Below, in pieces: positions 19,176 through 48,930 of a stretch of 64,000 bases of DNA. Numbering within the stretch: position 1 is the stretch's first letter; each line of letters opens with the position of its first letter. Under the pieces are notes generated by a model, which saw only the letters and a list, made by a program, of their open reading frames with translations, ran no database searches and was not told where the DNA came from. Made by a program: the position numbers and the translations under genes. The stretch is from Thermothielavioides terrestris NRRL 8126 (lineage: Eukaryota > Ascomycota > Sordariomycetes > Sordariales > Chaetomiaceae): contig NC_016459.1 of assembly GCF_000226115.1 (NCBI RefSeq), positions 3,333,501-3,397,500 of the forward strand. The letters are read 5' to 3'.

Positions 19176-19591
19176 ATGGATCCTATCTCAGGAATCGGGG
19201 CAGCCGCATCCATTATCCAGCTCCTAGGGCTCTGTGCTTCCTCGGCCAAGGCAGCGAAAGAGCTCTGGGAGGCGTACGCAGATGCGCCAAGGGAGCTCCA
19301 GCAGCTTGCCGAGAAAACTGAGTTCCTACGATACCTCTTGGAGCAAATCAACAACCTAGGCGTTCAGATTTCGGACGGAAACATGGACGATTTGCTGCCC
19401 GTGGCTCACCGAGCCATCATCATGGCGACATTGCAAGATCGAGCAGTCCAACTTGAACGGCTCAAAAGCATGCAAGGAGGTCGCCACACCATTGCTTCGA
19501 AGCTTCGCTGGGCTTTGTTGGACAAATCAAAGGCGAGCCGGATACTCAAAGTCGTGGCGGATCTCGAGCAAGAGTTGAACACCTGCCTCGC
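19176..19591 (+). pseudogene. 5' part of a split Fungal_N/ankyrin protein gene
   Basis: The frame begins MDPISGIGAAASIIQLLGLC and continues with LWEAYADAPRELQQLAEKTE, a hallmark of the fungal N-terminal helical domain (Fungal_N, PF17111) found at the front of many fungal NLR-like, ankyrin and TPR proteins. The reading runs to TCLA at 19591 and stops being host sequence there, because the LTR of a retrotransposon begins at 19592. The last five host bases, CTCGC (19587-19591), reappear at 46043-46047 after the right LTR. In this allele the frame would run on into the LTR and end at 19739, giving a 187-residue protein that holds only the N-terminal domain. Exon-side base composition is normal and shows no RIP. 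Confidence 0.85.
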
Positions 19592-19811
19592 TGATACGGT
19601 GGCACGCAAAATGCAGTATGCAGGAAGATTGATGGTAAGTGTGATGATGGATTCCAAGTGGGGAGGCTCCTACCACTGCCAAGATATTCTTGGCAGTGTG
19701 TGTGGGGCGTATGGGCCATATAGGGCAAACCCTGTATAGAGCAACCCTAACCTAGAGCCTGACCCAGATGGGGTCATCATCTATTTATATATATAGGAGT
19801 ATCCGGTATCA
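19592..19811 (-). repeat. 3' LTR of the outer element (left copy)
   Basis: This 220-bp copy aligns with 45823-46042 without gaps. The two differ at about 20 positions, all transitions. RIP-type changes in this copy (about 6) all lie at 19720 or beyond, on the side facing the element. On the strand that reads with the element there is a TATA-like TATATAAATAG near its 5' end. Confidence 0.93.
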
Positions 19812-20094
19812 AGTGCTGGGCTATAAGAAAAAATATAGCAATGCCCTTACTACGTTGATCCTCGTATTGATCCTCCTTCCCGATTCGGTAATTCAATCCT
19901 TTTATATATCCTCCTTGCTAATGTATATACTGTGCTATAGATTTGGGGCCGGACTAGCTACTACAATGGTTGAATATATTGGCGAAGGCGGCTCCGCAAT
20001 ATACTCAACTAATATAGGTGTCTTCCTAAGCGTTATAAGTTGTAGCGCTATAAGCTATAGCGCTATTATATGCTCAACTGGGGCTACCGGTACA

Positions 20095-20226
20095 GGCATC
20101 TCCTATAAGGAGTTCCTCGTCGATAGAGTAGCTAGTATAGGCGCCTCTTATAAAGAGGTCTTTATCGATAGGCTAGCTAATGTAGACATCTCCTATAAGG
20201 AGGTCCTCGTCGATAGACCTACTATA
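20095..20226. repeat. Tandem 45-bp repeat, about three units
   Basis: Units start at 20095, 20140 and 20185. They share the core CTCCTATAAGGAGTTCCTCG with RIP-type differences. On the minus strand, the coding strand of the outer element, each unit encodes a 15-residue repeat (TLSTR-x-SLQE-like) in the C-terminal extension of pol. A second small tandem array, GTCTATAGCCTT repeated about three times, lies near 20366-20401 and encodes a KAID repeat on the same strand. Confidence 0.75.
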
Positions 20227-20429
20227 GGTACTTCTAGCTATAGAGCCTTACCTATAGTCGCTAGAAGCTATAGTATAGCTAGCGCTATATTCTAGGGACG
20301 GCTATATAAGTGCTTAGCGGGTACTATAGCGCCTATAGCCTTCTCTATAGCCTTGCCTACGACTTTGTCTATAGCCTTGTCTATAGCCTTGTCTATAGCC
20401 TCTATATTCTTCTAGAGCTAACTATATAG

Positions 20430-23400
20430 GCGCTTAGCTAGGGCTTCGGCTTCCTCCTTCTTCTATATTACGCCTATAGGCAGGTCGATACCTAGGCGTT
20501 TCTAATATTCTTCTACAACCTTAGGCGTATACTATATTTCGTATAGCGATTTCTAAGCGTTATAGTAGGCACTTAGGTTCTTCTACTAGATTAGATACTT
20601 GATCTATATACCTATAACTAAATACTTAAGAATATACTCTACCTTATAGTTATCGCTAAATTTATAATCCTTAGACTAATCGGATATTTAAGAATCTTCG
20701 ACTAGGCCTACCTCTAGTTCAATATGGCTATATAGATCTTCTCCTAGCGATATAGGCGAGAGGTGCTCTATAGAGATAACTAGGTAGATTCTTATATAGC
20801 TTAGAAGATTAAGTTTATAAGCTAGGTAGCCAATATAGCGCTTAATAGGGAACGGCCTAGTACGCTATTGTAACAACTTCCAAGGCAGGTTGCTAGGCAA
20901 GTAGTAGCTGTAATAGAGTTGAAAGTAAACCTTGTTACCGACATCGAATTTGATTTGCTAGTGACGGCTATCGTAGTAGCACTTAGCTTATATAGTTATA
21001 AAATCCATTGCTAATTATACTTTATAATATAGATCCTCTTATAATATAGGTAGGTCTACTAGGGTAGCTACGTCTAGATTAGCTGTCAATACGTCTAGCG
21101 GTCCTTATAGTTTAAAACTATATAACTACTTATAAGGCGTTAAATAGATAGGAGCCGAATAGGTACTATTAAAGTTCTACTACAATAGAAGGATAATATC
21201 GACCTAGTTGCTAGTTAGGAATTCAAAGGTATAGAATTATAAAGCGATTTCTATAATTTAATTCTTATACTCTACTAAGCTATCTACCTACAAATAATAT
21301 ATAGTAGTCATTAGTAGCTTAGTGCCCTAGTACTCCTATATACTAGTCTAGAGGTCCAATATAAACTTGCGATTATAATCGGAAATAATAGCTAATAGTA
21401 TACTCTAGTCTAACAAAAGCAACTAGTATATAAGAATGTAGCCCTAATCCTTTATAGAGTATTTGCTGTTGTCTAGCAATAGGAAGGTCTATTTACTACT
21501 CTTATAGGATATAGTCATCATTGCGTTAAAGCTGTTGTAACCTTCTAGTTGCCAAAGTAAGCCTTTTGATAACGCGCTCGAGAGGCTTACAATAAAATCG
21601 ATTGCGATTATATATATTAGGAGTATATCGCTTAGCTAAATCAGCTAATACTCGCCAATCAGCTTTTGTCGATCTATAGCATTAAGATAGTATAACGGGC
21701 AATACGCTATATACTTCTTAACTTCGTAGGTTTTATTGACTATAGAAATGCTACGTAAGTCGTATAGTATACGTTCTACACCAAAGTGGTACTTAGCATT
21801 GTAAACTACACTAAGGACTTCCTTAATCATCCTAAATAGTATATAAAGAAAACGTATACTATACAACTAGATATTGTAGATAAGGCTATTAACTATCGTA
21901 AAAGGCAGCCTAGAATATAAGAAAACACTGTTGCCCTTAGCGGTTATAGCGCTACTGCCAGTAAGATCATCGATAATAGCCTTATATTTAGAGTCTTCTT
22001 TATAGGCTACAATGAATTTCTAGTAGAGCGAATCCTCTATATAAGCTTCGGCAAAGGCGAACAACACGTTGTCGAGTACTACAAGGCCTTCTAGACGCTC
22101 AACGGGATCCTATATCGCCTTTAAACGGCTTAGGGCATCTAGCACAAAGTTGAGGCGGCTAGGCAGATAGTACAGCCGAAGGTCGTACTCCAAAAGGTAA
22201 ACAGAGGCTATAATTAGCCACCGGTTAGCCCAATCTATAGATAAGGTATTAAGCTAGGTCTACACTACAATCCTATATATAGCGGCGTAATCTATAAGCA
22301 CATTGACAAGGAGCTAGGCCAAATATATTATAGTATAGAGCTTTTTAACGGCCTACACTAGATATGCCACCTCTTGCTCAGAGGGCCTATACTATATCTC
22401 GGCCTTCGTTAGATATTAGCTAAGGAATATAACTAGGAGTACCTAATTCGATAGAATTAGCGTACTAAGCTCCTACTTATAGCTATCGTATAGATAGAAG
22501 ACTATTACCCTAAATCTATGCTCTAAGTAGCTATCAATTTATATAAAAAGCTGCTTATTAGGATCGAAGTAGTATAGGATAGTCGGGTCTTCCTTATAAA
22601 TCGTAGCCTAGATCGCTTTAAACGAGAGCTTTTCGGCCACTGTAGGCTCAAAGGTCGTTTTTACGTAGTAAACGGTCCTCTTAGAAGCGTTGCTAGTCTC
22701 AATATAGCCTTCCTTATAGCCCTTCTTTAACAATATAGTCTTACGAGCCTATAGAGGCTCTACCAGCTATATATAGTATAGGATTAGGTGCTATAGGAAA
22801 CCTATAGCGCTAATATATTATTTAAGAGCCTTGAAAGTATATAGAAAGGCAAGTTGCTTAAAGGCCTTAACGCACTATATAGTCGTTATAAGGCCTAGAC
22901 TATCAACGTAGAAGCTAAGTAACTCTATACTTAAATATCCAACGTATAACTTAGTGGGCGACAGGGTGATATTCTTAGTAGCGAAGAGGCTAAATATTAT
23001 ATCTAGATAGCGCATATAATCCTTAGCATTGTCCAAGTAGATAATAATGTCGTCAATAAAGGCTCGTATATACAACGAGTATAGCCTTAGGAGCTAGTCT
23101 ATAATACGTTAAATATACACTAGCGAGTTGCGGTAGCCTATTAAATACACTGTAGGCTGCTCAAGGCTATATAAGCTAATTAGAGTAAATCGATTACAAT
23201 ATAGAGGATAAACGCTAAACTAGTAGAAAAACAATATAGTATCGATCACTATAATAAAGTGCTTGCTATACAACTTAGCGATAATTTCCACTATAGAGGT
23301 AGAGGGTAGTTATTAGGCACCGTTATACAGTTTAAACTCTATAGATCGATTACAACTCTGCCTTTAAGCTCTCCGTTGTAGCTAGGTCGCTATACTACGA

Positions 23401-23910
23401 ACATAGGGTATACAAAAGAAGTAGCTTAGATAGCCTAGATTATATAGCCTTGCTTATACAAGCTATCGAATATCTTGTCGAGTACTTTACAATCTTTCTT
23501 ACTTAGTAGATATAATTAGGCGTTGACTTTCTAGTACTGCTAGCTCTCTACTAGAGGCATATATATCAGCTTGTTAAGGCTCTGCTAGACGAGGCCTTTA
23601 TCCTTCTAAAGGCTAGAGTATCGTTCGATAACCTTAATAAAACGCTACACGGTACTAGAATCCTTAGTATATATATATACGCTGTCCTTAGTAACGATTT
23701 CGTCTAGGCTTAGATCTATACGGAAGCCTAAGGTTAACTGCTTCTCTAGTACAAATAGCTTGCCTACTAGTTCGTTAGGGTCGTTGGCCTATATTAGTTG
23801 GAAGACGTAGTCGCTTATTAGCGTAGCGGATTTAGTATTATTGAACTTGCTAATTGAAATAGCTATTGTAAAGTTGATAGTTGGGATTATTAGTTATTTA
23901 TAAGTGCTAT
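20430..23910 (-). pseudogene. Outer element pol relic: RT, integrase and chromodomain
   Basis: Reading leftwards from 23910 with stops ignored: a reverse transcriptase entry motif KGRVVIDLQSLN near 23340-23375, the catalytic FIDDIIIY at about 23040-23065, and the VGYLSIELLSFYVDSLGL segment at 22875-22960. Integrase follows, with its zinc-binding part and a central domain around 21300-21660, then a terminal chromodomain-like stretch (VEYILKY...IKYLIQQKNLS) near 20520-20640. This order is that of Ty3/gypsy chromoviruses. The upstream end is cut at 23910, where element 1 was inserted; the frame resumes at 31286. Dozens of TAG and TAA codons at former CAG, CAA and TGG codons show RIP. Confidence 0.8.
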
Positions 23911-24397
23911 TGAATTAGGGTAATAGACTACCTAGATATAGGGACCTAGTTTTTCTATTCGTTTCAGTATATTGCATTCGTTGCTAGGGGGTCTAGCCCT
24001 CTAATTATATATATTTAAGTAGGCTAAGTCCATCTTCTTCGTTATTAAACAAGACATTAAGCAGTTGTCAATATACGTTCGTTGATACTACGTCGGTAGT
24101 TCTTCTTCTTCTAGGAAGGCTATTGAGCCTCTCCTCTTATTGTTCTATCTCTGTCTAGACAATAGGTATTCGAACTGTTGAGCTTTAACTATATTCTTAT
24201 TGTCTTTTGTCTTTCTGCTATATCCCACTAGACGTATCTAAGCTATATATCTTCCTCTTAGGAGATATCTTTCCTACTACTCGATATATACTATCTTCGT
24301 CCGTCTAGAGGGACACTATATTCCTTTGGGAGCTATCTTATACGCCTAGTCCTAGGTATAGTAGGGTAGGTTAATATAGAGGTTTTATACTATTTCA
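23911..24397 (+). repeat. 5' LTR of element 1
   Basis: This copy pairs without visible gaps with 30799-31285. It starts TGAATTAGGG and ends TTTCA, with a TATA-like stretch ATTATATATATTTAAG about 90 bp in. It is somewhat more RIP-mutated than the right copy at its 3' end (TACTATTTCA against CACCATTTCA). Confidence 0.9.
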
Positions 24398-25599
24398 AAT
24401 AGAGGCTTAATTGGGGAAGAGCTTAGCTCTATATCTAAACGAGATAATATAGACTACAAAGTCTTCTAAGATCGTAGAACTATACGATGCTATATTAATA
24501 GCTATACGACGACTATATAGCCGACCTATTGAGGCTCTAGCGTACCGATACTAATATCTCTAGGAGGCGTGGAAACCTATTGAGGCGTATATGTTCTAGG
24601 GGTCTATTGAGACCTTGTCCTAGGAGACCTTCCTTTGCCTAGACGGCGTAGGGTATCGAAAAGATATCCCGTTATCCCTAACACTTTAAAAACCTATTGA
24701 GGCTTCGTTATTATCGATATAGCAGTTGTAAAACGCTAACCTAATCGAAAGACGATAGTTCTATCCTTCTAAGTAAAGACAAGGGTAGAATTTTCATTAA
24801 TTATTATTTTCTTCTTTAGTTTAGCTGAACTAGTTACAAAAGTAGTTAAGTATAGTAGCTATTTATAAGCTTCTAAGCTTAGGACTACGCCTTTACGACA
24901 CTTAGCTTCTTCTAATAGTATATCTAGCACTGTTTTATATTAGATATAAGGTCTTAGTATAGACGTTTACTTTTTTTTTTAAAAGCTATACTCTTACCGC
25001 TATTACGCTAGTTAGGTTTAGTATATTAGTTGCTAGGGGTATCTAAGTAATTTATAAGGAACCTATAGTTATCCTTTAGGGCATTTAGACTATATATTCT
25101 AAAGGAATCTAGCTTCTTAAGAGGTTTTCTCCCTTTAGATAAACGTCGAAGGAGTTGATATTCCTATAGAAGTATATATATTAGTCTTTTTATAGTCTAT
25201 CGATATAGTCGTTGCCTTTTTTAAAGATGATAGCGAAGCGCCTAATAACTAGACTCTAGCGATATATATATATATTGTCTATAGAAGCTCTAGGAATCCT
25301 ATCGACCTCTATAATACTATTAATCTTAATATCGACCTCTAAGGGAGAGTCTAAAAATATATTTATCTCGTAGCCTTTCTAAGGTATACTAAGCGAAGAA
25401 GACCTAGCTAAAGCGGCGTAGATACCTCTTCTATCTTTGCTAGATACCTCTATTCCGCCTATCTATATAGAGGTACCTACAGTAATACCTTCTAGTCTCT
25501 CCAAAGCCGAAGCTCTAAAGAAGATAACTAAGTATATTCTTACTACTACGTTTAGCGCAACCTTTCTAACCTTAGCGAAGGCTAGCCTTTAGAGCTACT

Positions 25600-26641
25600 T
25601 CTCTAGTTAGAATGCTATATATTGGATTAAAACTTTTAAAGAGATATATAAAGCTTATTAGGTCACTAATGACAAGACCTATATATATCTATTTGAGCTT
25701 TAGTATAATACTACGATCTAGCCTATTATCCGTCATTAGGAGAAAAAGAACTAAGAGACCTAGGCAGCTTTTAAAGCTAAGTTCCTAAAGTGCTAGAAGG
25801 GCAACGATCCTAAGTAGTATAGTAATAGAGGTTACCTTTATAATCTAATCGAAGGGAAATGCTAGCTAGTCAGCAAGGTTATCTACAACCATTTCGAGTT
25901 GATCGACTATATATATACTATCGCCTCTACCAAAGTTTACAAGAAGCTACAGTATATAATCGTTCCAACTATATAGCGTACACTTGATTAACAGATCTAG
26001 ATGGCTTTTAAGGACCGTTAGCGTACCCTAAAGAAGGACGACAAAGACTCTATCTATACTACGAAGTGGATAGACTTCCTTAAGTTTGTTTAGGATACTC
26101 TTTAGAAGAGTCTTAATATAGGAAACCTCTTTCTTAAGACCTATAAGCGTAAAATCGATCTATAGAAGTACTACTCGCCTCTAGCTATACCTACTGTTAA
26201 GACGACTCCTAAGCTACAGGAGTAGAAAGAGGAGAAGCCGAAGAAAGCTCTTATGCCCACGCTCGCCGACGACAGCAAAGGGGAATACAGCGTCGCCAAC
26301 AGCACTAGCCTCAACTAGGCAAAGGGAGACTGCGCCCACGTCTTTACTAGCCTAGGTAGCTACGCCAATCACCTAAATAGGCTTCCCTATAATAGCGTCG
26401 TAGTTCTAGATTGCAATAAGGTCCGTAGTATAAGCGGTTACAACGATAGGTTACTAAGAGAGGACAGTATAGAGGACGCTATAGTTGTAGTTGAGGAGGA
26501 GGTCCTTAAGGAAGAAACCCCTAGTTGTACTATAGTGCTTTAGGCCGGCTAGACTCGCTCAACTACGAAGGGAGTAAAGAAAGAACAACCTTATTAAGAG
26601 CTTATTGTTGAAATCCCCTATAGAAAACTACCTAGTTTTTA
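25600..26641 (+). pseudogene. Element 1 unidentified reading frame
   Basis: With RIP stops ignored the plus strand keeps a long frame that ends with a TAG near 26641. It contains KTFKEIYKAY, GKCQLVSKVIYNHFEL and, between 26250 and 26420, an unusually GC-rich stretch (MPTLADDSKGEYSVA) that is hardly RIP-mutated compared with its surroundings. The position soon after the primer site would suit a gag-like protein. I do not recognise a domain, so the function is open. Confidence 0.4.
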
Positions 26642-28779
26642 ACACTAGCCCTCTAGACGTATAAGGATATATATTCTAGAAAGGGGGGAAGGTATAGAAG
26701 CTACTACCTCCGATAGTTTCGCTAGCGTTTAGCTACGTTTCTTTCCTAATACCTATTGTTATATTAGCCTCCTACTTGCTAGTAATATCTCTATTAGCTA
26801 TATCTTATTTAATCTTCGTCTATCCGCTATCTTTCGTTCGTTTTTAACCCTTAGGACCTTATTCTTTTTCGCTAGTACCTAAGTTTTCCTCCTAGGGGGT
26901 AACCCTACTCTTAGGGGCTTTATAGTCATTTATACCTTTTTCTTTTTACTTCTACCCTCTAGATAGATAGTTTCTATTATATAGGACTAAGTTTCTTAGA
27001 GCTAAAGTTAAAGCTAAGAAAAATCTACAATTAGAGTATACTATCTCTTAGTCTACTATCTATAAGCTAAGCTCCTAGACTATATTCTACCCTTTGTCTA
27101 TTCCTATCTATTATCTCTATCCCTTAGTAGTATAAACTCTTATAGTTGACCTAGTACTACGCTATCTACTCCTTAATAGTATCTTCTAGTAAGATAAACC
27201 ACTTTTAGCCCACTTCTCCTAGATATAGCTTTAACCTAGGATTATTCCTTAGATTATATAGGAGATAGCTCTATAAGATCAAGTCTTAAGCTAGGTACTT
27301 CTAATTATTCCTATAGACATAAGTCTAAGTATATTCTTTCTCTAACTAAATATAGTTAGTATACTTATTAGTAAAGAAAAGAGTGAGAGAAGTGTAGCTA
27401 TTAAAGGGCTAAGTTATATAGACGTCCCTATCTTTGCTAAAAGGAGTTGTTAAACGCTAGTACAATAGCTTATAGCTTTAGTAAAGAACTTTGTTGCTAT
27501 AGGAGTGTTAGTCTTCCTTTGCCTAGAGGGCAAGTATAAAAGGGAAATATAGTACTTATTTACGATCCTATACCTAGATTAAGAGAGCTAAAGCTCAGTT
27601 TAAGCGTATAGCGAGATAGTATATCTAACGCCTAAGTGGTCTACTATTATAATGCTCTATATACACTAGACAAAGGACTAAAGTATTACAGTGCTATTCG
27701 ATTATATTAACTAGCCTATCGTCAATATAAACTAATCGCTATATCCTACGCTAATCTTATTAATTGCTTAGTAGGACCTACTAGACGTATAGTAGCCTAA
27801 CGTTTAGTCGGAAGATCTTGATTATATTGTAGATAGCCTTGTATTCAACCAAGATTATAGCGTACTCGTCAATATAGCACTTATCTTTTAGTATTAGCAG
27901 ATCCCTTATTTTACTCTAGATTACCTAGATATACTTCTAGGCTATAAAAATGTTTATTTTTAGTATTAGCGAAAGATCGATTTAGTAGTTTATAATCCTA
28001 TATAACAAGGGCCTCTAATCGTCTACCTTATCGGTAATTTCCTATAAGACGTCGTAGGTATACTAGTTGTTTAACATCTTAGTTTTTAAATTATAAATTC
28101 GTATATAGGAGCTATATACGAATTTGAAAGGGAAGTAGAAGACCTGACTACTAAAGGCCTAATCTACCTAGAGAGACGAAAGTACTAGAATAAGGTAGTA
28201 AAAAGGTTAGAGGAAGGAAATGGTTCTAGGATAGTAAGGAGGAGAGGAAAGCTTTAAGAATTTAGGAGGCAAACGCTCTTTTCTAGCCTATCTCTAGCCA
28301 ATTAGTAGGCGCTATAGGCATTATCCGTTTTCTTTTACCTAGATTAGGAAAGAGCTAAGTAGCCCTTTTGCCTTTAAAGGCTTGCCTACCTCTTTTCTTA
28401 ATCCTCTTACTAGCTCTCTTATAATTAACTATTTCTTTTGCCTCGCCTACTACGCCTTAGATTTTCCTATAATCGCTTCAATTAGTCTAGATCTTTCTGC
28501 CTAGAGAACGACTTTTCTATTAAGCTAAATTTTTATATACTATTGCGAGTATTACTATAGGTCGTTGTAGGATTCCTAATTTTATAGGGCTTATATAATC
28601 TTAGGCTAATATAACCGTTGTCCTAAGATAGAAGTAGCTGCTTAAAGAACTTAAGTTTTATATACTACTAGGTTCGTAGAGGTCTGCTAGAGATGGCAAT
28701 CAAGTGAGGTATTATACCTCCCTTATAGGGCAAGAGCTAGACTTAAAGATGCTAAGTCACCTTAGGGAGACTAGTCCTA

Positions 28780-29640
28780 AGCTTTTTCTATTTCTATAGA
28801 CCCTAAAGAAGTACCTACAAGATATAATCAACTAGCGGCCTAACTAGATTCAAAGCCTTTGGCTTAGTATAAACTCTAAGATTATAAGCTACCTTTTCCT
28901 AAGCTAGCTAGAAGGAAGGTATATAATAGATCGGTTTTTTAAAATTAGCTTTATAGATATAGGTATTTTACTCTTCGATATAGAAGGTATACTATTTACT
29001 AAAGAATAGTTAGAGGACTAGATAATCCTAGACGTTATATAGTTTTTCTTTTGTCTTTATAAGGACTATCTCTAATTCTATCTATAGCCTATCTTAGATA
29101 TCAGTCCTACGTTAAAGGAGTTCTACTAGTCTAACTAAAAGGTTATTACTAACTATTGTCGTTTCTAGGTTTTTCTTTGCTTTGTCGATAGAAGGTATTA
29201 GGCTATTGTAATCTTCGACTAAGTTGTAGGCTAGCTTTACTACTTTGACTCTATACTTAAGAGCATAGAGATATACGTTAATATCTTATTAAAGGTCTAG
29301 GTCGCCTTCTAGTCTATCTATAGGTTCCCTTAGTTGTAGCTATATAAGGAGGTAATTGTCTACTACCCTTAGCAAAGTATAGGTTAGGAGTATAGATAGT
29401 TCTCTCTAAAGTTTATATAAGCTTTTCTTTAAAAGCTCTAGCCCTACTTTCTAGATAGACTAATATAATTTAAGATGCCCTAGCTCCAACTATATTAAGG
29501 AGATAATAAGAAGGTTATATAGCGGTATATATTATACTTATAGTTAGGAGCTTATAGGAATGCTCTTAGTATCTTTAAGGATTGTCTACTCTATACTAAA
29601 GGGATCTTTTTGCTATAATAGAACAAAGGTAAAACGTATA
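28780..29640 (+). pseudogene. Element 1 Ulp1/SENP-like (C48) cysteine protease relic
   Basis: The plus frame keeps the spacing of a Ulp1 C48 peptidase once RIP is allowed for. At 29196-29201 the codons TAT-TAG stand where CAT-TGG (His-Trp) would be. At 29241-29249 an intact Tyr-Phe-Asp supplies the acidic residue in a YYFDSIL context. At 29373-29375 a CAA (Gln) lies exactly six codons before a TAT at 29391 that would have been TGT (Cys), followed by a Gly-to-Arg type change. His-Trp, Asp and Gln-x5-Cys-Gly is the catalytic layout of Ulp1 proteases, which cleave SUMO or related conjugates. In this copy the catalytic codons are destroyed. Extent is approximate. Confidence 0.6.
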
Positions 29641-30798
29641 AGCTCCCTCTTGACCTATTGTCTTCGACCTAAGAACCTATGTAGCCTACGCTCTTAGAGT
29701 ACAACGAAGATAAGGTGATCGAAGTCCTCTAAGGCAACAACGTATTTATGTCTAATGAACTGGATATTCCTAAGCTCAACGACCTGCCTATATATATCCG
29801 CGACTACTTTAGCGATATAGAGCTTAGGATCTTAGCTATATACTTAGTAGTATTTAAATAAGCCTAAATCCTTAACTAGAGTAAAAAGGGACTAATCGCT
29901 ACTATATAGTTGATCCTTATACCCTAATTAAAGTAAAAGGTAATATACTAAGCGTACTACTATAGGATTGTAGAGCTCCTACTAGACAGATAGCTAAGTA
30001 GCGGGCTATCTTTATAAGACCCTATAGGCGACTTTGGATAATAGTTGTAAGCTACGTTTTTAGTACCTAGAGCTATTCTACTACTCTAGCTAGAGGACTA
30101 GAATACTACTTTAAGACTATTAGCTACGTTAACGGAGGATTTTAACAATATATCGACCTAGGCGAACGTTGAGGCTAAGATTATAGAGATCGCTACAATG
30201 TAGACGACTACGACTTAAAGGCTTGTCGACGCTCCTATAGATAAGTTCGACTAGGAGCACCTCCTTAGTAGTATATAGGTCAAAAAGCTCGGGGCCCTAG
30301 TATAGGCGGTACTTAGGATAATAGTACTCGATCCCTACCTCTAAGAAGAGGAAACGTTTATCTATACGCTTATAAGGAGGCTAAACTATCTCAAGATGCC
30401 TTACTCGCTAGTATAGAAGCATTTATAGGCACGAAGATCGCTTATATTATCTAGCTATACGTTACCTTTAGTATAGCACTGTAGTAATCGCCCTTATAAG
30501 GAGCCTACTAAGCCTAAGCAGTTATTCCTCCTACTACTATACAACCTATATAACTACGCTTTCGTCTATACGTATAAGTATCTAGTATAGTAGTAAGGAT
30601 AGGATATATATATTAAGGAGGTAGAGGAGTATAAAAGACGGTATAATTAGCCATTGTAGCTAGCTAGACCTTCGTGAGCTAAGAGAGCTATATATAGAGA
30701 GTAGCTTAAGGAGTAGCGACGATAAAAGGCGTATACTAAGGAGCTTTTAAGGTATAAGCTTGCCTATAGGAGCGTATAGCAAGCTCAAAAGGGAAGTG

Positions 30799-31285: not shown

Positions 31286-31289
31286 CTAT

Positions 31290-34599: not shown

Positions 34600-34601
34600 A
34601 G

Positions 34602-37299: not shown

Positions 37300-40200
37300 A
37301 CAACGAAGATAAGCTTAATAGTAAGGATATAAACTTTATACTAACCGAAGGACAGATTATAGAAGTATAGCTATATATACCGCTATTAAAAGCATTGGAT
37401 AAGCAAGCTATATACCTTATAATTAACATTAGTATAAACCTAAGCGAGCTAGGCACTAAAGTTTACTTCGATATAGATAGCAATACTAACCTCGTTGATA
37501 AGGAGTTCATCTCCAAGTAGGCTAAGAACCTACGTTAGATTAATATAAAGCTATACTTTATTAAAGGCGTTGGAGCCTATACCAAAGTTAAGAAGTAAGT
37601 TGAGTTTGACTTCTATATCTAAGGAATCGTCTATAATACCAATGTAGACGGTCACTTCACTATAATAGCCAACGTTATTAAAGGTTTAGAAGCGAAACTA
37701 TTGATTAGAACTAACTTTATACTCTATAATAGAGTAAAGATTAACCTTAATACGTCTATCTATTACTTCTAGTCCATCTATAATATAAAGGTAAGGGTAT
37801 ATATAAAATGGAAAAGAACAATCTAGAAGATGAAAGTCGTAAACACTATAATAGTCGTACCTATAATGGAATACCTAATTAAGACTATATTCAAGTATAT
37901 AGATACTAATAACGACAATCTAGGTAGCTAGAAATATAAGCTCTACTTCGCTTTATACGTCGAGGGTATACTGGATATCGTTATAGACGTAAAAAGCGTA
38001 TATTAGGCCGTTATAAGGAACAACACTGTTTACCTAATTACTATTGTCGAAGGACAGTGTATTAGACACCTTCTTTAATATAGCCTAGAGGAGGATATCT
38101 AGACGATAGTATAGAACCTTATATAGTAGACCTAGGATAATATTATAGACGACAAATATATATAGATAACGACGATTATATAATAGGAGTCTAGCGATAA
38201 AGAACCGATAACAAAGACACTAATAGAGAATAAGTATAAGCTACCTACTAAGTAGGAGTTCTATACACTATCTTATAGTATCGAGAAACTAGACGACATC
38301 CTATATATTAAGTTAGTAGCAAAGGTGAACATCTATAGTAGGGACAAACGGTATATAAAAGAGATAAAGGCATTGCTAGACAAGTATAACGTCTTCTATA
38401 ACTATAGCATTGTCCCTATACCAAAGGATTAGAAGATAAGAATTTTACTTATCGACGGATACTAGAATTAGCTTAAGCCTATTTAGATTTACTCGCTAAA
38501 CACTAAAGACTAAGCGATCGTCGACGAAGAATATAATAAACTATATATATAAAGAAAGATAGACTTTATAGACTAGCTAACCCCTATCGTTTACCTAGTC
38601 TTTATAGTCTATTATATAGTTGCTAGAAAAACAAAAGGCAGAGCTATAGTAGACCTCTAGCCCTTAAATATATTGGTAGTACCAGATATATACCCGTTGC
38701 CTAACTAAGACGACATTATAAATATAATGATAGGCAATACAATCTTTATAGTATTCGACACTTCTAGATTCTTCTTTTAACTTCTAGTCGTAGAAGAATA
38801 CTATAACTATATAGTAGTCATTAGTCCTAGAGGTTTAGAACGTTTAAACATTATATTAATAGGATTTAAAAACTTACTAGCTTTTATATAGTACTTTATA
38901 GACCGTTTATTCTATAAGTATAAGCACTTTATATATACCTATATCGACGATATTATTATCGCTAATAAGAATATAAAGGAGTACCTCAAGTACATTGAGA
39001 TAGTTCTCGATATTCTTGACAAGGTATATATTTATATTTCAGTAGAAAAATCCTTCGTAGCCTACCTATCAATGAAACTGCTTAGCTATATAGTCAATGG
39101 CGAAGGAGTAGCTAAGACGGACAATAGGATCGCTATATTTAAGAAACTTAAGTTCCCTAATACCCTCGAGACTTTAGAGCAATACCTTAGTATAGTCGAA
39201 TAGCTATATAAGGGTATCCTATAGTATATAGCGAAAGTATAGCCTCTATAGGATTGTAAAACTAAGCTCTTTACCTAAGGGAGAGTAAGTAGAGACCTTC
39301 CTATCGCTAAATCGAAGAACGCTAGGAAAGTATTTACTTTGAACGTTAAATTCGAGCCTATACTAATAGAACTAAAGTCCTTTAAGTTACTATAGGAATA
39401 TCTATATAAGTAGTACTTCCTATATCATTATTGTTTTAACAAACTACTGTTTATCAAGCTTAATATAAATAACAAGGGATATAGAGTAATTGTCTTTCAA
39501 CTCTATTGCGAATAGGACAATACTAGTATCCTTAGCTAAGATATTCTAAATAGCGAGATCTAGCCTATTATATTCTTGTCTCGCCTAACTTCCAACGTAG
39601 AAAGGAAATATAGGAGTATAGAAGTAGAAGTCGCCACTGTCGTATAGGCAGTTAGGAAGCTCTAAAAAATAGTATAGTCAAACTAATACCCTATAAATAT
39701 TCTAATAGACTATATAGTAACTAAAGGCATTGTAAAATATATATCTCTTACTACTATAGACCTTATAAAGGCTAACCTAAAGCTCGCCAACGCTATAAAC
39801 TAGCTATCTTAGTTCGACCTCAACATTTTCTATATACTAAGAAAGCTCAACGTTGTACTAGACGCTCTATTATACCTACTGACCTTCGAGGAGGACGCCC
39901 CTAACGAAACCTAAAATACTACCAACGAACTAGAGGACATTTAGTCCATTATTTAGATCGATACTAAGGAATACTACGCTATAGACACTAGTACCTTTAA
40001 ACTAGTTATCAATAATAAGTTTAAAGCTAAGCTAACTATAGTTTATCCTAACAACTGCTAGTACAATAAGATTATTAGGAGTCTTTATAATATAGAAGAA
40101 TAAGCTAAGAAGATCGCTAAGTAGAGAGAACGTAAAGAGTAAGAAGAAAAGTTACGAAGAAAGCAGTACTAAAAGCTATAGCTTAGACCCTATAAACTAA

Positions 40201-41640
40201 AGGATAGTCTCCTCTACTACGTCGACTATAAAGGAACGAGGAAGCTTTATATCCCTAGTAGCTATATTAAGGACATTTTTGCCATTGTATACGACAATAC
40301 TTACCACTTTAGGATAGACAATATAATAGCGAACCTCTTAGCATTTACGTTTAACTAAAAGCATTAGATAGTATATAAATACGTTTAGCACTATCCTATA
40401 TATAGAGAGAACTAGACTTTAAGAGAACTAAAGCCTAGAGACCTTTAGCCAATTTAGATATCGCTATAGCCTTTCTATACTATTACTATAGATTTTATTG
40501 TCGGTTTACCTACTATACCTTCTAAAAGGATACTATAGTCAATGAAAAAGTACCTAATCCTCAACGCTATATACACTATTATCTATAAGTTTAGTAAGAA
40601 GAAGCTTCTTATAGCTAGAAACGATAAAATGTTAGTAGAGGAATAGGCTATTATAATTTTTAGAGTACTAACGTATATAGATTAAGGACTTCTAATATAA
40701 ATCATTAGCAACCGAGATACTAAGTTCACCTCTAACCTATAGAAGGAAATCTTTTGTATCCTAGGCGTTAGCCTCCTTTTCTCGATAGCCTATTATCCCT
40801 AGATAGACGATTAGTTAAAGAGGATAAACCAAACAATAGAAATCATTATCTATATAGAAGCTATAGAAAAACTAGGAACGCTATAGCCTCTACTTCTCTC
40901 TACGTTGTAGTACAACTTTAATAATATGTTTGTAGTCACTATCGGAAGATCGTTAAACAAATTAATATATAGCTTTAAACTACACTCTATCTTAGATATA
41001 CTTTACTATAAGAAGGGTACTATTGCCTTTACTAAAGCTATCAATGTCCTAAGACAGTAGTATTAAAAAGAAGTAGTAGAACAGATCGATTATATAGGCG
41101 CTATTACAAAGATATATTACAACAATAAGTATATACCTACCGAGTTCAAAGTAGGAGATACCGTTTACCTATAATTGTATAATAGATACCATCTTCTAGG
41201 AAAGCTTAAACGAAAGTGGTCGCTATAGCGGGCAAGACTATTTAAGATTGTCTATAAAATCAATAAGAACGCCTATAAGCTTAACTTCCTAGCTAGTTGG
41301 AAAGTCTATCCTATAGTTTTAGTTTCCTAGTTATAGAAACTAGATTAAGGGAAAGACCTCTTTAACTATAATATAGAGCCCCCTAGCCCTATAATCGTTA
41401 ACGGAGATAAGTATTAGGAAATCGAGAGAATTATATAACGACGTATTATCTAAAAGAACTAAAGACCTAAGGTCAAGTATCTAGTATAATAGAAAGGATT
41501 TACCGTTAAAGACGACTAGTAGATCCTATATATCTAGCTTATTAACGATACTAAGGAACTTGTTAAAGAGTATAAAGAGATATATCCTATCGACTAGGAG
41601 AAGGAACACTGTAATAAGGGTATCGCTACTAAGGAATAGA
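37300..41640 (+). pseudogene. Element 2 pol relic: protease, RT, RNase H, integrase, chromodomain
   Basis: Stops ignored, the frame gives a retropepsin-like part (KVYFDIDSNTNLVDKEFI, D-x-G altered by RIP), then the RT palm with VVISPRGLERLNIILIGFKN and YIDDIIIANKN, the RNase H motif IIFLSRLTSNVERKYRSIEV, and an integrase core with TITIDFIVGLPT (first Asp at 40491-40493), ISNRDTKFTSNL (second Asp near 40716) and QLKRINQT, where the catalytic Glu reads Lys, a G-to-A change. The C-terminus carries a chromodomain-like KYLVQQKGF, which in related elements targets integration to heterochromatin. The protein cannot be made from this copy. Confidence 0.85.
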
Positions 41641-42639
41641 AGGAAGTAAAGGAGATTCCTTGATCCTAGAAACGAGTTGTCGTCGAGCTACTATAGAGGA
41701 AGGGTAGCGACTACTAATAGCTATACTATTATTGACTTTCCCTTTCCTTCTTTCCTATTTCCCTTTTTTCCTTTTATTCGTTTATACTTTCCTTATTAGA
41801 ATACATTTACTTTAGTATATCTATTACCGCTATATTGCTATTAGATGTATAAGCGTTGTCCTCTATCTTATAGATCTTCTAGTTTTTCCTCTCTTTACCT
41901 TTTACTTAGATATCACCAACGCTTTTAGTTATAAAACTATAGTTATTTAGTTCGTTAAGCACTTTGCTTATCCTAGTTTTCCTATATATAGATTTACTAT
42001 TGACTTTAACCTATAAATGGTTAGGGAAAGCCATCTTATCGCTATAAAGGCATAGGGCTTCGAGCCTCAAGGGTATAATGTTCTATTCTCTAGCTGCTAC
42101 TAGATAGTAATATTGTTTATTGGCTATAGGTACTATACTATTATTTTTATTTACTTCTAAAATAGCTTAATGTAGGCTACTATAATTTCCTTTCTCTTTA
42201 TATATCAACTTCAATGTATCTATCTTCTTTAACAATTCCTTATTGCAATCATTTATATTCGCTATACGATCGATCGTTAGACCTTTTTATCACTGAGCTA
42301 TATACATTTATATAAGCTACTATTAGTCGATATATATTTACACTATATTTGTAAATTGAGATAATTCGCTATATATTCTCGTAGTACCTATATTAACGAT
42401 AGAGGCGACTATATAGTCGATTCTCTTAGCTCGCTAACGTTATCGAATAGCGAAGTGCTCGAGTACAATTATATCGATATTATAGAGGGAGATACTCGAC
42501 TAGTCTTCGTTGTTTATAAGATGTCTCCCTATATAAGAAAGACGCCTACTAAAGGCTATACTACCAATATCTAGAAGAGGGAGAGCGCCCAACTCGTAGC
42601 TAAGTAAATAGGAGGAGTAAAGAAAATCGACAATATGCC

Positions 42640-44515
42640 TAACGTTCCTTTATATATCTTAGGAGCTTCTACGTCCTACTAAGCTATTACTAAAGACGTC
42701 GCTACTAGAACTACTTATAACAACGAAATAATAGCTATTAAAGAAGCTAATATAGCTAAAGTAATCTAAAACAGCTTAGAGACTGCTTATAAAAAGCGAT
42801 AGTAGAATGTTACTATAGACCTTATTATAGTGTCCAACAACGAATAGGAAGTCTATAAGGACTATAACAAAGCGTTAGACAACGACACTATATAAGAGCA
42901 TTTAGAAACTCTCTTAACTTATAAGTATATAGAAGGGGAGTAGCCCCTACAATGTACACTAGGGATCAAGTATCTAGAAACTAGTAACGTCTCCTCTACT
43001 AGCGTATAGCGCTAGGAAGTCTAGTAAGCTCTATATATTGTATTAGAAGATAAGGCTACTACAACTAACGACGACCTAGACGTCTCTAACGACGATAGTA
43101 CTAATTACATTAATAATAAAGAGGATATAGCGACTAAGCTATATTATATCCTAGAGCTTTAGGAAACCTATATATTATATAGGTACTCTCAGCGTCTAAC
43201 TAGAGCTATAAACAAGTATATCGCTACTATAAGCAAAGCACTTGCTTATATATATATAGATTTTAGTTATAATAACGAATATATAGCTAAGCTAGCGATA
43301 CAATTCACTAGGTTCTACTATATAGTCCTAAAGAAGGATTTCAGTAATAAGCCTACTAGCTTTATATATAACTTATATATTTAGAGGATCAAAGGCACGA
43401 TTAAAAGAGTCTTTAAAGAGTTCTAAAAGACAGATATAGTTATAGTAAGCTATATATCGACTATAATAAAAATCTTTGTATTACATTATATCTCGCCTAA
43501 AGGCGAGGGCAACCCTTTTATAAACGTGATATTAGTAGAGCTTGGACTAGCCTATTACAACAACGCTTAAGCTATAGATATAGCGAGTAGTACTAGCTAT
43601 ACGATTACTACGAATAATAATACTATTAAATCTCTACAAATAGATATAAAAGTAGTATAAACGCTAACTAAGGATCTACTCCAATTTGCCTAGAAGTACT
43701 AAGTCTATATTAAAGAAGTCGAAAAAACTATAGTAGAATTAGCAAAGTTCATTAGTATATCAAAAGTAAATAGCAAAGCTAGTAACCTAGATCCTAGTAG
43801 TCTTACCTTCTAGGGCGACCTTAATAATATATACTATCATTGGATAGTAAAGATTAGCGACTTATAGCTAGTGTACGATAAGACCGTGATAGATCTCTGT
43901 TATAAAAACAACGCTCTTCTAAAGAAGATCGACCTCGCTATTTAAACGACAATAAACTTATACAATAGCATTTATATAGGACTGGCATAGCGTATATAAG
44001 ACGTTGAGCGCTATTTAGTAGCTATCGAGACCTAAGCTACTACAATAGATTTACCTACTATAAAGGCAGCTATTACAAAATAAGCTAGAATATCCATTTA
44101 GACTACTAGCTACTATAAAGCAGTACCTAAGATCGTTTACGCTATAACTATAACTACAATGTATATTGTTAAAGCTATATAGTTACCTATATAGAAGATA
44201 CTAAGCAAGACACCTATAGCCAAAGCTACGCTATTGGTTGTACTAGCAACGCTAGCTAAGACGCTATAAAGTCAGTATAATAACGATACCTAATCGACAT
44301 TAGAAGCTAAAATTGTCGAGGTTATAGGCAATAAGCGCTAAAGAAAAGTAATAATCGACGACAAGGTATAGAAGACGCTAATACATCCTCCTAAGAAAGT
44401 TAAGAAGATACTTATATCCATTGAATATAGAGTAGCTACAAAGACGTCGAAGGCAGCTAGGGACGACCTATATACTAGCAATAGCACCGTCGACCTAGAC
44501 AAGTAGAACAAATGA
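42640..44515 (+). pseudogene. Element 2 extra reading frame downstream of pol
   Basis: If RIP-type stops are read through, one plus frame runs for roughly 620 codons and ends with a TGA at 44513-44515, about 170 bp before the 3' LTR. It starts near PNVPLYILGASTSYQA and contains ELAKFISISKVNSKASN and DLNNIYYHWIVKISDLQLVY. Coiled or helical stretches rich in Ile, Lys and Gln dominate. No domain is recognised. The position is that of an env-like third gene, but I see no clear membrane segment or signal peptide; a displaced gag is another possibility. Confidence 0.45.
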
Positions 44516-44687
44516 ACAAGTAAATTACAACGGAGAACCTTACTATAGACCGGAATAACAGATATAGAAATCCTATATAGGGTATAATATAGATTAGTTT
44601 TCTTCCTTTTTATATACTCCTTTATCCTATATTAAGTTCTATAATGATGGCGAGGACGCCATCTTTTTCTTCTTATCCCTAGGCACT

Positions 44688-44936
44688 TATCACATATAAC
44701 TATAGCAAAGGCACCTATAACCGTACCGTGGTCAAGGGTGACGAGCATTCCCTTAAAAAAGGGAACCTCGCCTATAACCCCTTTGTAGAATAGTAGACTG
44801 TATCAATATACTTTTGTAACATATACTAGTGTTTAGGAGTACCGCCTTATCAGCTGACGAGGCTAAGAGGCATTGATCTTTCTCACCCTCACACGTTTAC
44901 CGCTAGATGGTCACTGAGCACTATTTGCGTATAACA
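44688..44936 (+). repeat. 3' LTR of element 2
   Basis: This copy partners 34351-34599, ends in AACA and is followed at once by the GAGGT duplication. The bases just inside it (TTTTTCTTCTTATCCCTAGGCACT) resemble the 3' end of the outer element next to its own LTR, so the two belong to related gypsy lineages. Confidence 0.92.
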
Positions 44937-44941
44937 GAGGT

Positions 44942-45822
44942 CGATGCTTCATCATTAGGATAGCCGTCTTTATCTTTATCAAATTCCTTAGACAAATTTT
45001 ACCTAGTAACAAAGGATATCTTAGCTTTCTATAGATTACGGTCGAGGGTAGTAGAGTCTTAGGTATTATAAAGGCTACAATTCAAATTAGCTAGAAGGAC
45101 TAGGTATTTGGCCTAGGTATACTAGGTATTATAGGCCTTAGCTACCTAGTATTCCCTACTAAGATTACGCTCCTTAACTTACTCTATTAGAGGTATAGTC
45201 AAAGCTATAGAGGATCGAGCCATTGCTAATAGGTTCAGTTTAAGAAAGTCACTTAGTATACTCGACGTATCTTTCAAAGGATTCTATAGCCTAGAGGGCT
45301 TTTCTAGGCCTTTCGCTACTTTAGGAGGTATATTTTCTACGTTAGCCAACGTAACCAATAGACCAACTAAGCATTAGTATAGTAAAGTAGATATAGATCG
45401 GAACAAAGTAGCCACTAGCTATATAGAACACAGTAATAGCTTAGGATACTAGCTATATACTAGCTAGGGGACTCTATAGCATCGAGGGTGTCACTAAGTA
45501 TAAGTAGGATATAAGCCCTAACGAGCCTTAGATTAGGAGGGTATAGAGTTACTAAGATATAGCCTTCTAGACCGTATAGAATATAGGGGCTATAGCGCTC
45601 AACGAGAAAGAGGGGAGGGTATAGTAGCCGTCGAAATCCTTATTGGACCCAACTGCTTAGTAGAGATAGTTGCAGTTGACTTCTATATAGTATATAGAGG
45701 CCTCCTATAGGTAAGCCGTCGCGATTTGCGGATACTCGAATAGTTCGATTCAAATAGATTCGATCGATCAAATAGATTGAATAAGATAGCGGTTAGCACG
45801 ATCGTAAGTCGCAGCTACCATT
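44942..45822 (-). other. Leader and 5' gag region of the outer element
   Basis: After removal of element 2 this stretch joins 34345 and forms the 5' end of the outer element on the minus strand. Bases 45820 to 45791, read on the minus strand, start TGG two bases inside the LTR and act as the primer-binding site; the plus strand there ends in GCAGCTACCA like a tRNA 3' end. RIP has removed any clear gag start. Confidence 0.6.
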
Positions 45823-46042
45823 TGATACAGTAGCACGCAAAATGCAATATATAGGAAGATTAATAGTAAGTGTGATAATGGATTCTAAGTGGGGAGGCTC
45901 CTACCACTACCAAGATATTCTTGGCAATGTGTGTAGGGCGTATAAGCCATGCAGGGCAAACCCTGTATAGAGCAACCCTAACCCAGAGCCTGACCCAGAT
46001 GGGGTCATCATCTATTTATATACACAGGAGCATCCGGTATCA
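45823..46042 (-). repeat. 5' LTR of the outer element (right copy)
   Basis: This 220-bp copy carries about 14 RIP-type changes relative to the left copy, all within its first 125 bases or so, the side facing the element. The outer part next to the host exon is clean. It ends GGTATCA and is followed by the target duplication CTCGC. Confidence 0.93.
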
Positions 46043-48930
46043 CTCGCCATTGTCCAGACGTGAGTCGCGCTCTCATGGCATTTCTTGCCACGTTCCAGAA
46101 ACTGACAACTTAACTCGGCCGTGTAGACGTCTACAAACGCTGAATCACTCGACAATTGGTCGAGTTGCCGTCGCTCAAGCTGCTTTACTACCCGCCTTAC
46201 AGGCTGCGTCGTTCCAAGTGCAATCATATATTCAGACCAGTTCCATTGAACACGAGACCACTCGACACGTTGTTAAGGAGGTACGGCACTTGCGCCCATC
46301 ACTTAACCACTGCACTGTACATTGACAATTTGATAGTCCTCGGACCTCGTCCGGAAGGATATCCATGCCCTTGGTGCGGCCCAGCAGGCTTTGGTTCAAA
46401 GCTCCAACGAGCACACGGTTATACTCCAGGCCCTCCTCCACGCAATGACTAGGATACAGGTGGGTGTATGCGTAGGACTCTTTTCTTTTCACGTCCGCCT
46501 CGCTAACTACCTATCGCCACTTTAGACACCGCCGGAGACGGAGCCTTGTACGAGTGCCGTCAGAAACTGCAATGCCCGGCACTCCGCCGTGCCCACTGTA
46601 TCCGATGACCCCGTCGACATGGAGAGGATCGAACGGGCTCGATATCACCACCAGGTGGTAGCCGAACACTCCTGGTCTTTTAGTGCTGGAGACACCCCCT
46701 CAACCCTCCCCTCCGGCTTGGTGGCGTGGCATGGCACTTCCGCGAGGGTTAAACTGCAGCGAAAACGCCACGAAAAGACACTCCGAGCAAAAGTCCGAGC
46801 GTGGGTCACACTCTTTGGGCCAAAGGTGGTTGAGTTCGAGTTTGCGGTTCGCCTTCGATCCATGGCTTGGCTGTCGCCATTGGTGCAGTGCCGCGTCGTC
46901 GCGGCCAACGTAAGGTCGCAATTCTCCCCAATCTTCCAAGCCTGCAAATACGGAGACCTCAAGCGCATCAAGCTACTGTTGGAGAGCGGCGAAGCCAGCA
47001 TCAACGACAGAAACATCATTGGTGACGGGCTATTATGGGTGAGTGCTAGGGTTTTCTTTCCTTCTCGACCTAGTAACACGCTAAGAGCTTTACCGCTGGC
47101 CCCGACAGAGCCAGCGCCTGGCTCTCCTTCTTGGAATTGCCACCTCGTCCACACATCATCGGCGATGTCTCAGAGCATATTAACATTTGACTCTCTAGTA
47201 TGCTGTTCAGTGCCATCAGGAACCCCGGCCGACCCTGAGCAGTCCGGCGTCGACAGTCGTGCAGTACCTCCTAGACTGCGGCTGCGATCCTAACCTCGAG
47301 TCCAGGTAAGTTTCAGCACTGAATGCAGATCGGCTGCGCACTAAGTCATTAGCGGACTTGCATCTCTGATTTTCTCCCGTTTTATAGGCCCGCTCTGAAC
47401 CTCGCTCTGCGGAGTGGGCAGGTTCAAGTTGCTCGGGCGCTGATCCGGGGTGGCGCTGACCTATACTCAGCGGTTCATCCCCCTCCGCATGATATGCTCG
47501 GCGCTCCCAACGAGGGGATCCTCCGAGCCGAAATAAACCTGCTCAATAGCGAGGACTATTGGCAGTGGCAAGTGCCCCTTTCTGAAACGAGCACGCTGGA
47601 TGAGTGGTTGAATCTGTTAGCGGCTGCCAGTGACGCGGGAAGTATGGAATATGTAATGAAGGCCGTTGACGTTCTGAGATTCCCGATTTCTTTGTCAAAG
47701 ATTGCTGCCTACAGGGCGGTTACAAAGGCTAACATCGAGACGCTGGCCATCCTCCTGCGTCTCCGTGCGGAGGATGGCATCTCCCGAGCATCCATCGAGC
47801 TTGACTTGTTTCAACGCGTCATAGAGAGAGGCAGACTCTTCATGATGCACTATTTTCTATTTCGCGCAGCGGATGAGACGGGAAGAAAGGAAACGAGCCT
47901 CGTCTCGCACACCACGTGGTCAATCCTTTGGACGAGGCTTTTGGGGGACTGCAATTGGGAATTTCAGGAGGTGGAGGGTATTCTGCTTCATTTTCTACTG
48001 CACACCGGGACTGATATGACGGGGATACGTGATAAGTTCTCATTGTTTGCCACTCTCTCGCTGTACCGGAGGGCACCTAGGTGGCTTGACCAGTTATTTC
48101 CACACGAGATGCTCAACGGCCTCGACGCAGCTCAGGTGTGGAGCCTGTGCCGTCTCGGCGAGTTGTTCTGGAACTACCCTGAGCCGAACCACATCGTCCA
48201 CCCCAGCCTCGCCGGCGAGTTGAAGGAGGCTCGATCAGTAGTCAAGATGGACTGGTCACTCCGAGGGTTCGTCAGCAAGGAGCCCTATATTGACCCGGAC
48301 TTCGAACTGGGACCCCGCTATCGGTATTTAGACGAGGAGAGCGATGGATCACTGTCATCAAAACCGTGGCTCCTTGAAACGGAGCGAATCAGCCAGCCTT
48401 TCGACAACAGAGCTTCACTCAATGCCACCGACGTTATCCACGGCTGTCCTAACGTGGACGCGATCAAGGCAGCGGCTAGGCGCTCGGAGGGCAGGAGATA
48501 TTTTCTGCGCTATAATACGGGCCGGAATCCTCCTCCCCTCAGGGAGTACCCTCATGTGCCGGACGAGATCCTGTTCAATGACAGCACACTATTCTACGAC
48601 AACATCTCCACCGAGCAGGGCAGGCAACAGCTGTCCAGGTATCCACTGAGCCGGGCTCTGTGCAACGCCCTGCAGCTCGCCGGATACCGTGCAGACATGG
48701 ACGCCGACGGGGACATCTGGTTTGAGGATGATGACGGAGACCGTTACTACGACGCAAGGGAATACCAGCCCGGCCCTGATCAAGATGATGACGTGGTGGA
48801 GAACTGCCCTGTCTGCCAGAACCCGGATAAATACGGGCTGGGGTTCATTATCCGTCGCGCTAAGATGGGAGAGGCGTTCGTTGACGAGTTCAGGGCGAGG
48901 AGGAAGGAGGGAAAGTATGCGACTCTCTGA
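46043..48930 (+). pseudogene. 3' part of the split Fungal_N/ankyrin protein gene
   Basis: 46043-46047 repeats the target site; host coding resumes at 46048 and completes exon 1 at 46059. Further exons are 46127-46280, 46337-46459, 46526-47038, 47199-47305 and 47388-48930, with introns of 67, 56, 66, 160 and 82 nt, all in phase. Joined to 19176-19591 they give 955 codons. The second and third exons encode helical segments (AVAQAALLPALQAASFQ, HALGAAQQALVQSSNEHT). Ankyrin-like repeats follow: ACKYGDLKRIKLLLESGEAS, VVQYLLDCGCDPNLESR and LNLALRSGQVQVARALIRGG. The C-terminal 480 residues have no recognised domain and include an acidic patch and a CPVCQNP motif. Exons look undamaged, so the retrotransposon is the only visible lesion. 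Confidence 0.82.

What the first reader, a model, noticed from the sequence alone, without database searches (positions are those of the whole stretch)
19176..48930. A Fungal_N/ankyrin gene split by a 26.45-kb triple-nested retrotransposon
The sequence shows host coding up to 19591, an LTR element at 19592-46042 with target duplication CTCGC on both sides, and host coding resuming at 46048. Skipping the insert restores the codon phase exactly, and all five downstream introns keep phase through to the stop at 48930 (955 codons). Fungal_N/ankyrin proteins belong to the repertoire linked to non-self recognition and heterokaryon incompatibility, so a loss allele here could change recognition behaviour. 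The clean exons suggest the insertion is recent on an evolutionary scale, or that selection holds the allele in the population.
Basis: seen in the sequence. Interest (0 to 1): 0.88.

Follow-up and report, generated by a model that had tools for sequence, protein, structure and literature searches.

The report
Fungal ankyrin gene split by retrotransposons
A 955-codon fungal gene has been cut in two by a dead, mutation-riddled retrotransposon that itself carries two more; the break is real, but it looks like an ordinary transposon-made pseudogene.

Summary
A 26,451-bp insert (19592-46042) with 220-nt LTRs and a CTCGC target duplication lies in a host gene. Skipping it and five GT-AG introns leaves one 955-codon frame, 19176-48930. 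Four database proteins of full length, including Bombardia and Cladorrhinum (Sordariales), align across the junction. "Triple-nested" needs correcting: one antisense, probably Ty3/Gypsy-type element of about 8.5 kb holds two separate insertions, so there are three elements but two levels. Five of five other copies of the outer element examined in the same genome lack both inner inserts. All 102 LTR differences over 956 sites are transitions, which points to repeat-induced point mutation (RIP), so raw LTR divergence is no clock. The absence of transversions and the still-open host frame suggest a recent insertion. Of 12 LTR pairs of this family examined, 8 span more than 14 kb. The incompatibility link is weak: the N-terminal hits are below Pfam cut-offs, and no NACHT or NB-ARC domain was found. 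Whether selection maintains the allele was not testable. This is a well-formed example of a known kind.

The parts
19176..19591 (+). 5' part of host gene: start codon and 138 2/3 codons, weak PigL_N/HeLo-like N-terminus
19587..19591 (+). target site duplication, left copy CTCGC
19592..19811 (-). left LTR of outer element (3' LTR if the element is antisense), 220 nt; the host frame runs on into it and stops at 19739
19812..23910 (-). outer element, internal part A; reverse transcriptase and RNase H traces on the - strand, frames broken by many stops
23911..31285 (.). inner element 1: LTRs 23911-24397 and 30799-31285 (487 nt, 54 transitions, 0 transversions), CTAT on both sides; class not determined
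31286..34350 (-). outer element, internal part B, carrying the left GAGGT target duplication at 34346-34350
34351..44936 (+). inner element 2: LTRs 34351-34599 and 44688-44936 (249 nt, 28 transitions, 0 transversions), target duplication GAGGT; Ty3/Gypsy type (RVT_1 over cut-off; RNase H and Tf2-1-like SH3 below), frames broken by many stops
44937..45822 (-). outer element, internal part C
45823..46042 (-). right LTR of outer element (5' LTR if the element is antisense)
46043..46047 (+). target site duplication, right copy CTCGC
46048..48930 (+). 3' part of host gene: exons 46048-46059, 46127-46280, 46337-46459, 46526-47038, 47199-47305, 47388-48930 (stop); ankyrin repeats and a conserved C-terminal module

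Best explanation
A host gene found once in this genome (weak HeLo-like N-terminus, ankyrin repeats, conserved C-terminal module; no nucleotide-binding domain found) was disrupted when an LTR retrotransposon of about 8.5 kb, probably Ty3/Gypsy, inserted antisense, 12 bp before the end of its first coding exon, duplicating CTCGC. Two further LTR elements later inserted at separate sites in the first one. RIP then riddled all three with transitions, and the gene's coding frame was left without a stop. The allele should be a null or truncating one: translation from the gene's start ends in the LTR (stop at 19739). Shown: anatomy, target duplications, homology across the junction, transition-only LTR differences, nesting. 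Inferred: order of events, loss of function, recency, RIP as the mutator.
For: LTRs, TSD and frame. Homologues across the junction (a fifth, P0016, aligns over 99% of the query). 6 of 6 listed protein matches in the genome are this locus. 40 matches to the outer LTR listed genome-wide, this locus's two included; 12 of 12 LTR pairs examined have matching flanks, 11 with 5 bp and 1 with 4 bp. Five of five un-nested copies align in order to parts A, B and C only, with some unaligned gaps of up to a few hundred bases. 102 of 102 LTR differences are transitions over 956 sites. CpA/TpG context, as RIP prefers (general knowledge): 16 of 20 differences in the outer pair and 16 of 25 in inner element 2. 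RIP composite index +0.81 to +1.54 in the insert's interior and inner LTRs, -1.59 and -0.41 in the two gene parts.
Against: No empty allele from another strain was available. The closest homologues are only 28-38% identical, so orthology is likely but not proved, and their gene structures were not examined. In inner element 1 only 17 of 46 differences counted are clearly in CpA/TpG context, 12 more being ambiguous. The outer LTRs themselves have negative RIP indices, -0.73 and -0.43. The first 500 nt right of the insert have a slightly positive index (+0.15), so slight leakage there is not excluded. No expression data.
Confidence: 0.93

Rival explanations
1. The two halves are now separate functional genes: an N-terminal piece ending in the LTR and a C-terminal ankyrin protein started from an internal ATG, perhaps under the LTR's promoter, so selection keeps the exons open.
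For: Exons are intact. An in-frame ATG opens a 478-aa ORF at 47494-48930. Shorter relatives of 491 and 499 aa are recorded in Fusarium (P0006, P0008).
Against: Recent insertion explains the intact exons as well. The short Fusarium models may be annotation. No promoter or transcript evidence was sought or obtained.
Confidence: 0.12
2. The insert is removed as a very long intron and the gene still works.
For: The left LTR has a GTAAGT donor-like site at 19635.
Against: A 26-kb intron is far beyond fungal norms (general knowledge). Splicing from that site to the acceptor at 46126 changes the phase: 416 + 43 nt gives phase 0, while exon 46127 is entered at phase 2 (arithmetic). Other donor and acceptor choices were not enumerated.
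Confidence: 0.01
3. The disrupted allele of an allorecognition gene is maintained in the population by balancing selection.
For: Weak HeLo/HeLo-like similarity plus ankyrin repeats. Het haplotypes in Podospora can differ by LTR insertions (PMC10890737, passage seen: intergenic at het-B).
Against: No nucleotide-binding domain match, domain scores below cut-off, no population data. Recency needs no selection.
Confidence: 0.04
4. The junction is a misassembly.
For: Nested repeats are prone to misassembly (general knowledge).
Against: Target duplications are exact at the outer and second inner element, with 4 bp at the first; the outer parts are in the same order in 5 of 5 other copies.
Confidence: 0.02

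Closest known systems
Nested, RIP-mutated Ty3/Gypsy LTR retrotransposons of filamentous ascomycetes (general knowledge)
   Same: LTRs, 5-bp target duplications, transition-only differences, elements inserted in elements
   Different: Nothing essential; here the outer insertion lies in a recognisable coding exon
Fungal 'Fungal N-terminal domain-containing' ankyrin proteins, e.g. P0001 Bombardia bombarda, and P0002 Cladorrhinum sp. (named only hypothetical protein)
   Same: Same length class and order of N-terminus, ankyrin repeats and C-terminal module; 73 of 125 and 75 of 119 aligned residues identical over 830-955
   Different: They are recorded as one protein; here the gene is split
Fungal NLR / HeLo-like cell-death proteins
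   Same: Weak N-terminal similarity and ankyrin repeats
   Different: No NACHT or NB-ARC match; N-terminal domain scores below cut-off

Membership tests
LTR retrotransposon (outer element) | Two matching LTRs with a target site duplication | tested here: met
   220-nt LTRs, CTCGC/CTCGC
LTR retrotransposon (outer element) | Ty3/Gypsy-type reverse transcriptase | tested here: inconclusive
   RVT_1 24.8 bits (E 2e-05) against a 29.6 cut-off, weak RNase H and Tf2-1-like SH3, one - strand frame, stops masked
Ty3/Gypsy (inner element 2) | RVT_1 reverse transcriptase | tested here: met
   30.0 bits against 29.6, stops masked
Ty3/Gypsy (inner element 2) | RNase H and Tf2-like SH3 after the reverse transcriptase | tested here: inconclusive
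   in that order in the frame but below their cut-offs; no integrase match listed
LTR element (inner element 1) | LTR pair, target duplication, reverse transcriptase | tested here: inconclusive
   LTR pair and 4-bp CTAT duplication; 0 of 6 frames gave a Pfam match at E <= 0.1
RIP-mutated repeat | Differences between copies are transitions; high TpA/ApT, low CpA | tested here: met
   102 of 102 differences are transitions; composite index +0.81 to +1.54 in the interior and inner LTRs, but negative in the two outer LTRs
Fungal NLR | NACHT or NB-ARC domain | tested here: not met
   No match listed at E <= 1 in the joined protein nor at E <= 0.1 in 9 of 9 homologues scanned
HeLo-like (PF17111) / HeLo (PF14479) | Match over the curated cut-off | tested here: not met
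   19.6 of 27.2 and 17.0 of 23.2 bits for the N-terminal piece; 16.8 and 18.3 in the joined protein
Ankyrin-repeat protein | Ank match over the cut-off | tested here: met
   Ank_2 36.1 bits against 27.3 in the joined protein
Heterokaryon-incompatibility gene | Allelic difference triggers incompatibility | not testable with these tools
   needs strains and crosses

The most novel reading that the evidence does not exclude
A recent, retrotransposon-made null allele of a HeLo-like/ankyrin receptor lacking a nucleotide-binding domain, kept polymorphic because loss changes recognition behaviour.
Probability: 0.04. Interest if true: 0.55.

Novelty: new member of a known kind. Interest (0 to 1): 0.2.

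Why it matters
It is a cleanly readable pseudogene: the insertion site, both target duplications and the joined frame survive, so it records the loss of one accessory gene. It also illustrates why LTR divergence can misdate insertions in genomes with RIP: 9-11% raw divergence between LTRs here contains no transversion. Beyond that it looks ordinary; 8 of 12 LTR pairs of the same family examined span more than 14 kb and are probably nested too.

Tried and rejected
Chance join: rejected by homologues continuing across the junction. Three-level nesting: rejected, because the five un-nested outer copies examined lack both inserts and the LTR of inner element 2 occurs elsewhere in pairs about 10.2-10.35 kb apart (six such spacings in the list), so that element is probably uninterrupted. 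Dating by LTR divergence: rejected because of the transition-only pattern. Dating by frame survival: under neutral change the chance of seeing no stop falls to 5% at about 2.7% substitutions per site, or about 1.0% if frameshifting indels are added at an assumed rate of 0.1 indel per substitution. Class of inner element 1: no Pfam match in 6 of 6 frames. Outer element: 0 of 3 + frames of part A and 0 of 3 of part B gave a retroelement match; 1 of 3 - frames of part A did, 0 of 3 of part B; part C was not scanned. Fold of a homologue (P0002, mean pLDDT 55.4, pTM 0.37): the 50 of 837 PDB matches shown are, by their titles and my recall, ankyrin-repeat or designed ankyrin proteins nearly throughout and say nothing about the N-terminus. 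Reverse transcriptase searches of the whole genome listed no match inside the insert; for RVT_1 only 150 of 488 candidates were scored. Open-frame test at the empty sites: the stretch at this locus is almost all on the left side (581 nt left, 13 right), so it is weak evidence by itself. Papers: 7 searches; no listed title describes this locus. Passages only were seen of PMC12258605, PMC4986451, PMC10890737 and PMC9815663. The species name Thermothielavioides terrestris is my inference from 36,912,256 bases in 6 contigs and recall; no tool named it.

Full report
What was checked. The insert's two LTRs (19592-19811 and 45823-46042), their ends and the CTCGC flanks were read directly and by alignment. 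Leaving out 19592-46047 (the insert and one CTCGC copy) and five GT-AG introns from 19176-48930 gives 2868 nt: 955 codons and a stop, with no internal stop.

The gene is real. A protein search with the joined sequence returned four proteins at E <= 0.001, all fungal and 864-974 aa long: Bombardia bombarda, Cladorrhinum sp., Fusarium euwallaceae and Colletotrichum destructivum (only the 7995 candidates sharing most words were scored). They are 28-38% identical to it in the alignment, and homology runs through the junction: 11 of 21 identical residues just before it in both P0001 and P0002, then 8 of 21 and 6 of 16 aligned just after it; P0003 and P0004 are weaker, 8 and 7 of 21 before and 6 of 21 each after. 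P0004 has a 19-residue insertion four residues after the junction. A profile search added a further full-length homologue in Xylaria (P0016, 27%, 99% covered); the other 30 hits of that call match 20% of the query or less, or have no coverage given, and most carry many ankyrin domains. These are predicted proteins; their gene structures were not examined. The own genome showed no second copy: 6 of 6 listed matches are this locus, with the tool's warning that counts are lower bounds. The C-terminal 126 residues are the most conserved of the long segments measured (73 of 125 and 75 of 119 in P0001 and P0002) and have no Pfam match over a cut-off.

What the insert is. The outer element is about 8.49 kb once the two inner elements are left out. 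Five copies elsewhere in the genome (L038-L042) align to its three parts in order and lack both inner elements; small stretches stay unaligned, and L040 has about 280 extra bases. In L042 both sides of inner element 1 end on the same two bases (4248-4247), inside the CTAT duplication, as expected for an empty site. So both inner elements entered the outer one independently: three elements, two levels. With stops masked, the outer element gives a reverse transcriptase trace in one - strand frame (24.8 bits, below the 29.6 cut-off) and inner element 2 one on the + strand (30.0 bits, just over the cut-off), both with weak RNase H and Tf2-1-like SH3 traces, as in Ty3/Gypsy elements. Inner element 1 gave none. 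In the 24 frames counted, stops occur on average every 9 to 18 codons and the longest open stretch is 160 codons, so all three look dead.

RIP and age. The three LTR pairs differ at 20 of 220, 54 of 487 and 28 of 249 positions, all transitions, in ungapped alignments. The CpA/TpG context is clear in the outer pair (16 of 20) and inner element 2 (16 of 25) and weaker in inner element 1 (17 of 46 counted, 12 ambiguous). RIP indices are high inside the insert and low in the host gene parts, but also low in the outer LTRs; the first 500 nt to the right of the insert are slightly positive. Such mutation makes LTR divergence useless as a clock, but the absence of transversions and the surviving host frame agree with a recent event. 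For scale, the chance of no stop falls to 5% at about 2.7% neutral substitutions per site, or 1.0% with an assumed indel rate.

How unusual it is. The outer LTR has 40 matches listed in the genome, this locus's two included. Of 30 fetched LTR loci, 24 form 12 pairs, all with matching target duplications (11 of 5 bp, 1 of 4 bp); two are solo LTRs with target duplications and four were not paired because the partner was not fetched or not seen. Eight of the 12 pairs span more than 14 kb and four span 8.4-8.9 kb (positions), so nesting is probably common. In the 28 loci that are not solo LTRs, the 500 nt outside the element have GC 0.47-0.61 and a negative RIP index in 27; the exception is the right flank of this locus. 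An open frame longer than in most shuffles touched the junction at this locus (p 0.010) and at one other (L018/L013, 280 codons, 0 of 200 shuffles); the other 10 pairs gave p 0.10 or more. In both cases the stretch lies almost wholly on one side. Splitting a coding exon therefore does not look like the rule for this family.

Function. The N-terminus has sub-threshold matches to PF17111 (called Helo_like_N in PMC9815663, passage seen) and HeLo, and ankyrin repeats pass their cut-off; no NACHT or NB-ARC was found, nor in 9 of 9 homologues scanned, whose PF17111 and HeLo scores are also all below cut-off where present. PF17111 itself found 5 places in the genome, 2 over the cut-off, none of them this gene. 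[quoted passage not shown] The protein may still act in cell death or recognition, but nothing here shows it. In PMC10890737 (passage) LTR retrotransposon insertions lie between genes of one het-B haplotype in Podospora; that is a precedent for insertions near such genes, not for this case.

Verdict. The description is confirmed with one correction (depth of nesting). It looks like an ordinary transposon-made pseudogene, well preserved.

Noticed in passing
whole genome G000: Beside RIP-mutated families the genome holds multi-copy elements without stops: 5 RVT_1 matches of identical score in 1324-aa open frames, 15 RVT_2 matches of nearly identical score (14 in 1799-aa open frames, 1 in 817) and 4 in 1519-aa frames. 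Recent families seem to have escaped RIP, as if RIP has become weak or sexual cycles rare.
   Followed up: no
L003 and L027: Two solo LTRs of the outer family with target duplications AGTGG and GTGGC; L027 is the least RIP-like LTR of the 30 (index -1.74).
   Followed up: partly
L002-L031: LTRs of the outer family are much less RIP-like (index -1.74 to +0.33) than the interior next to them (+0.74 to +1.78 in 27 of the 28 non-solo loci, +0.42 in one).
   Followed up: partly
L018/L013 (G000:C1:115390-131203): Another copy of the outer family abuts a 280-codon open frame on the - strand, a possible second interrupted gene.
   Followed up: no
48550-48927 (C-terminal part of the gene): The C-terminal module with a CxxC pair is strongly conserved: all 13 invariant columns of the 15-homologue alignment A2 lie in it. 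It has no Pfam match over a cut-off.
   Followed up: partly
1-2000: The left end of the window is AT-rich with a RIP-like index (+1.2); LTRs of the inner-element-2 family lie within about 12 kb to its left at C3:3321374 and 3331574.
   Followed up: no
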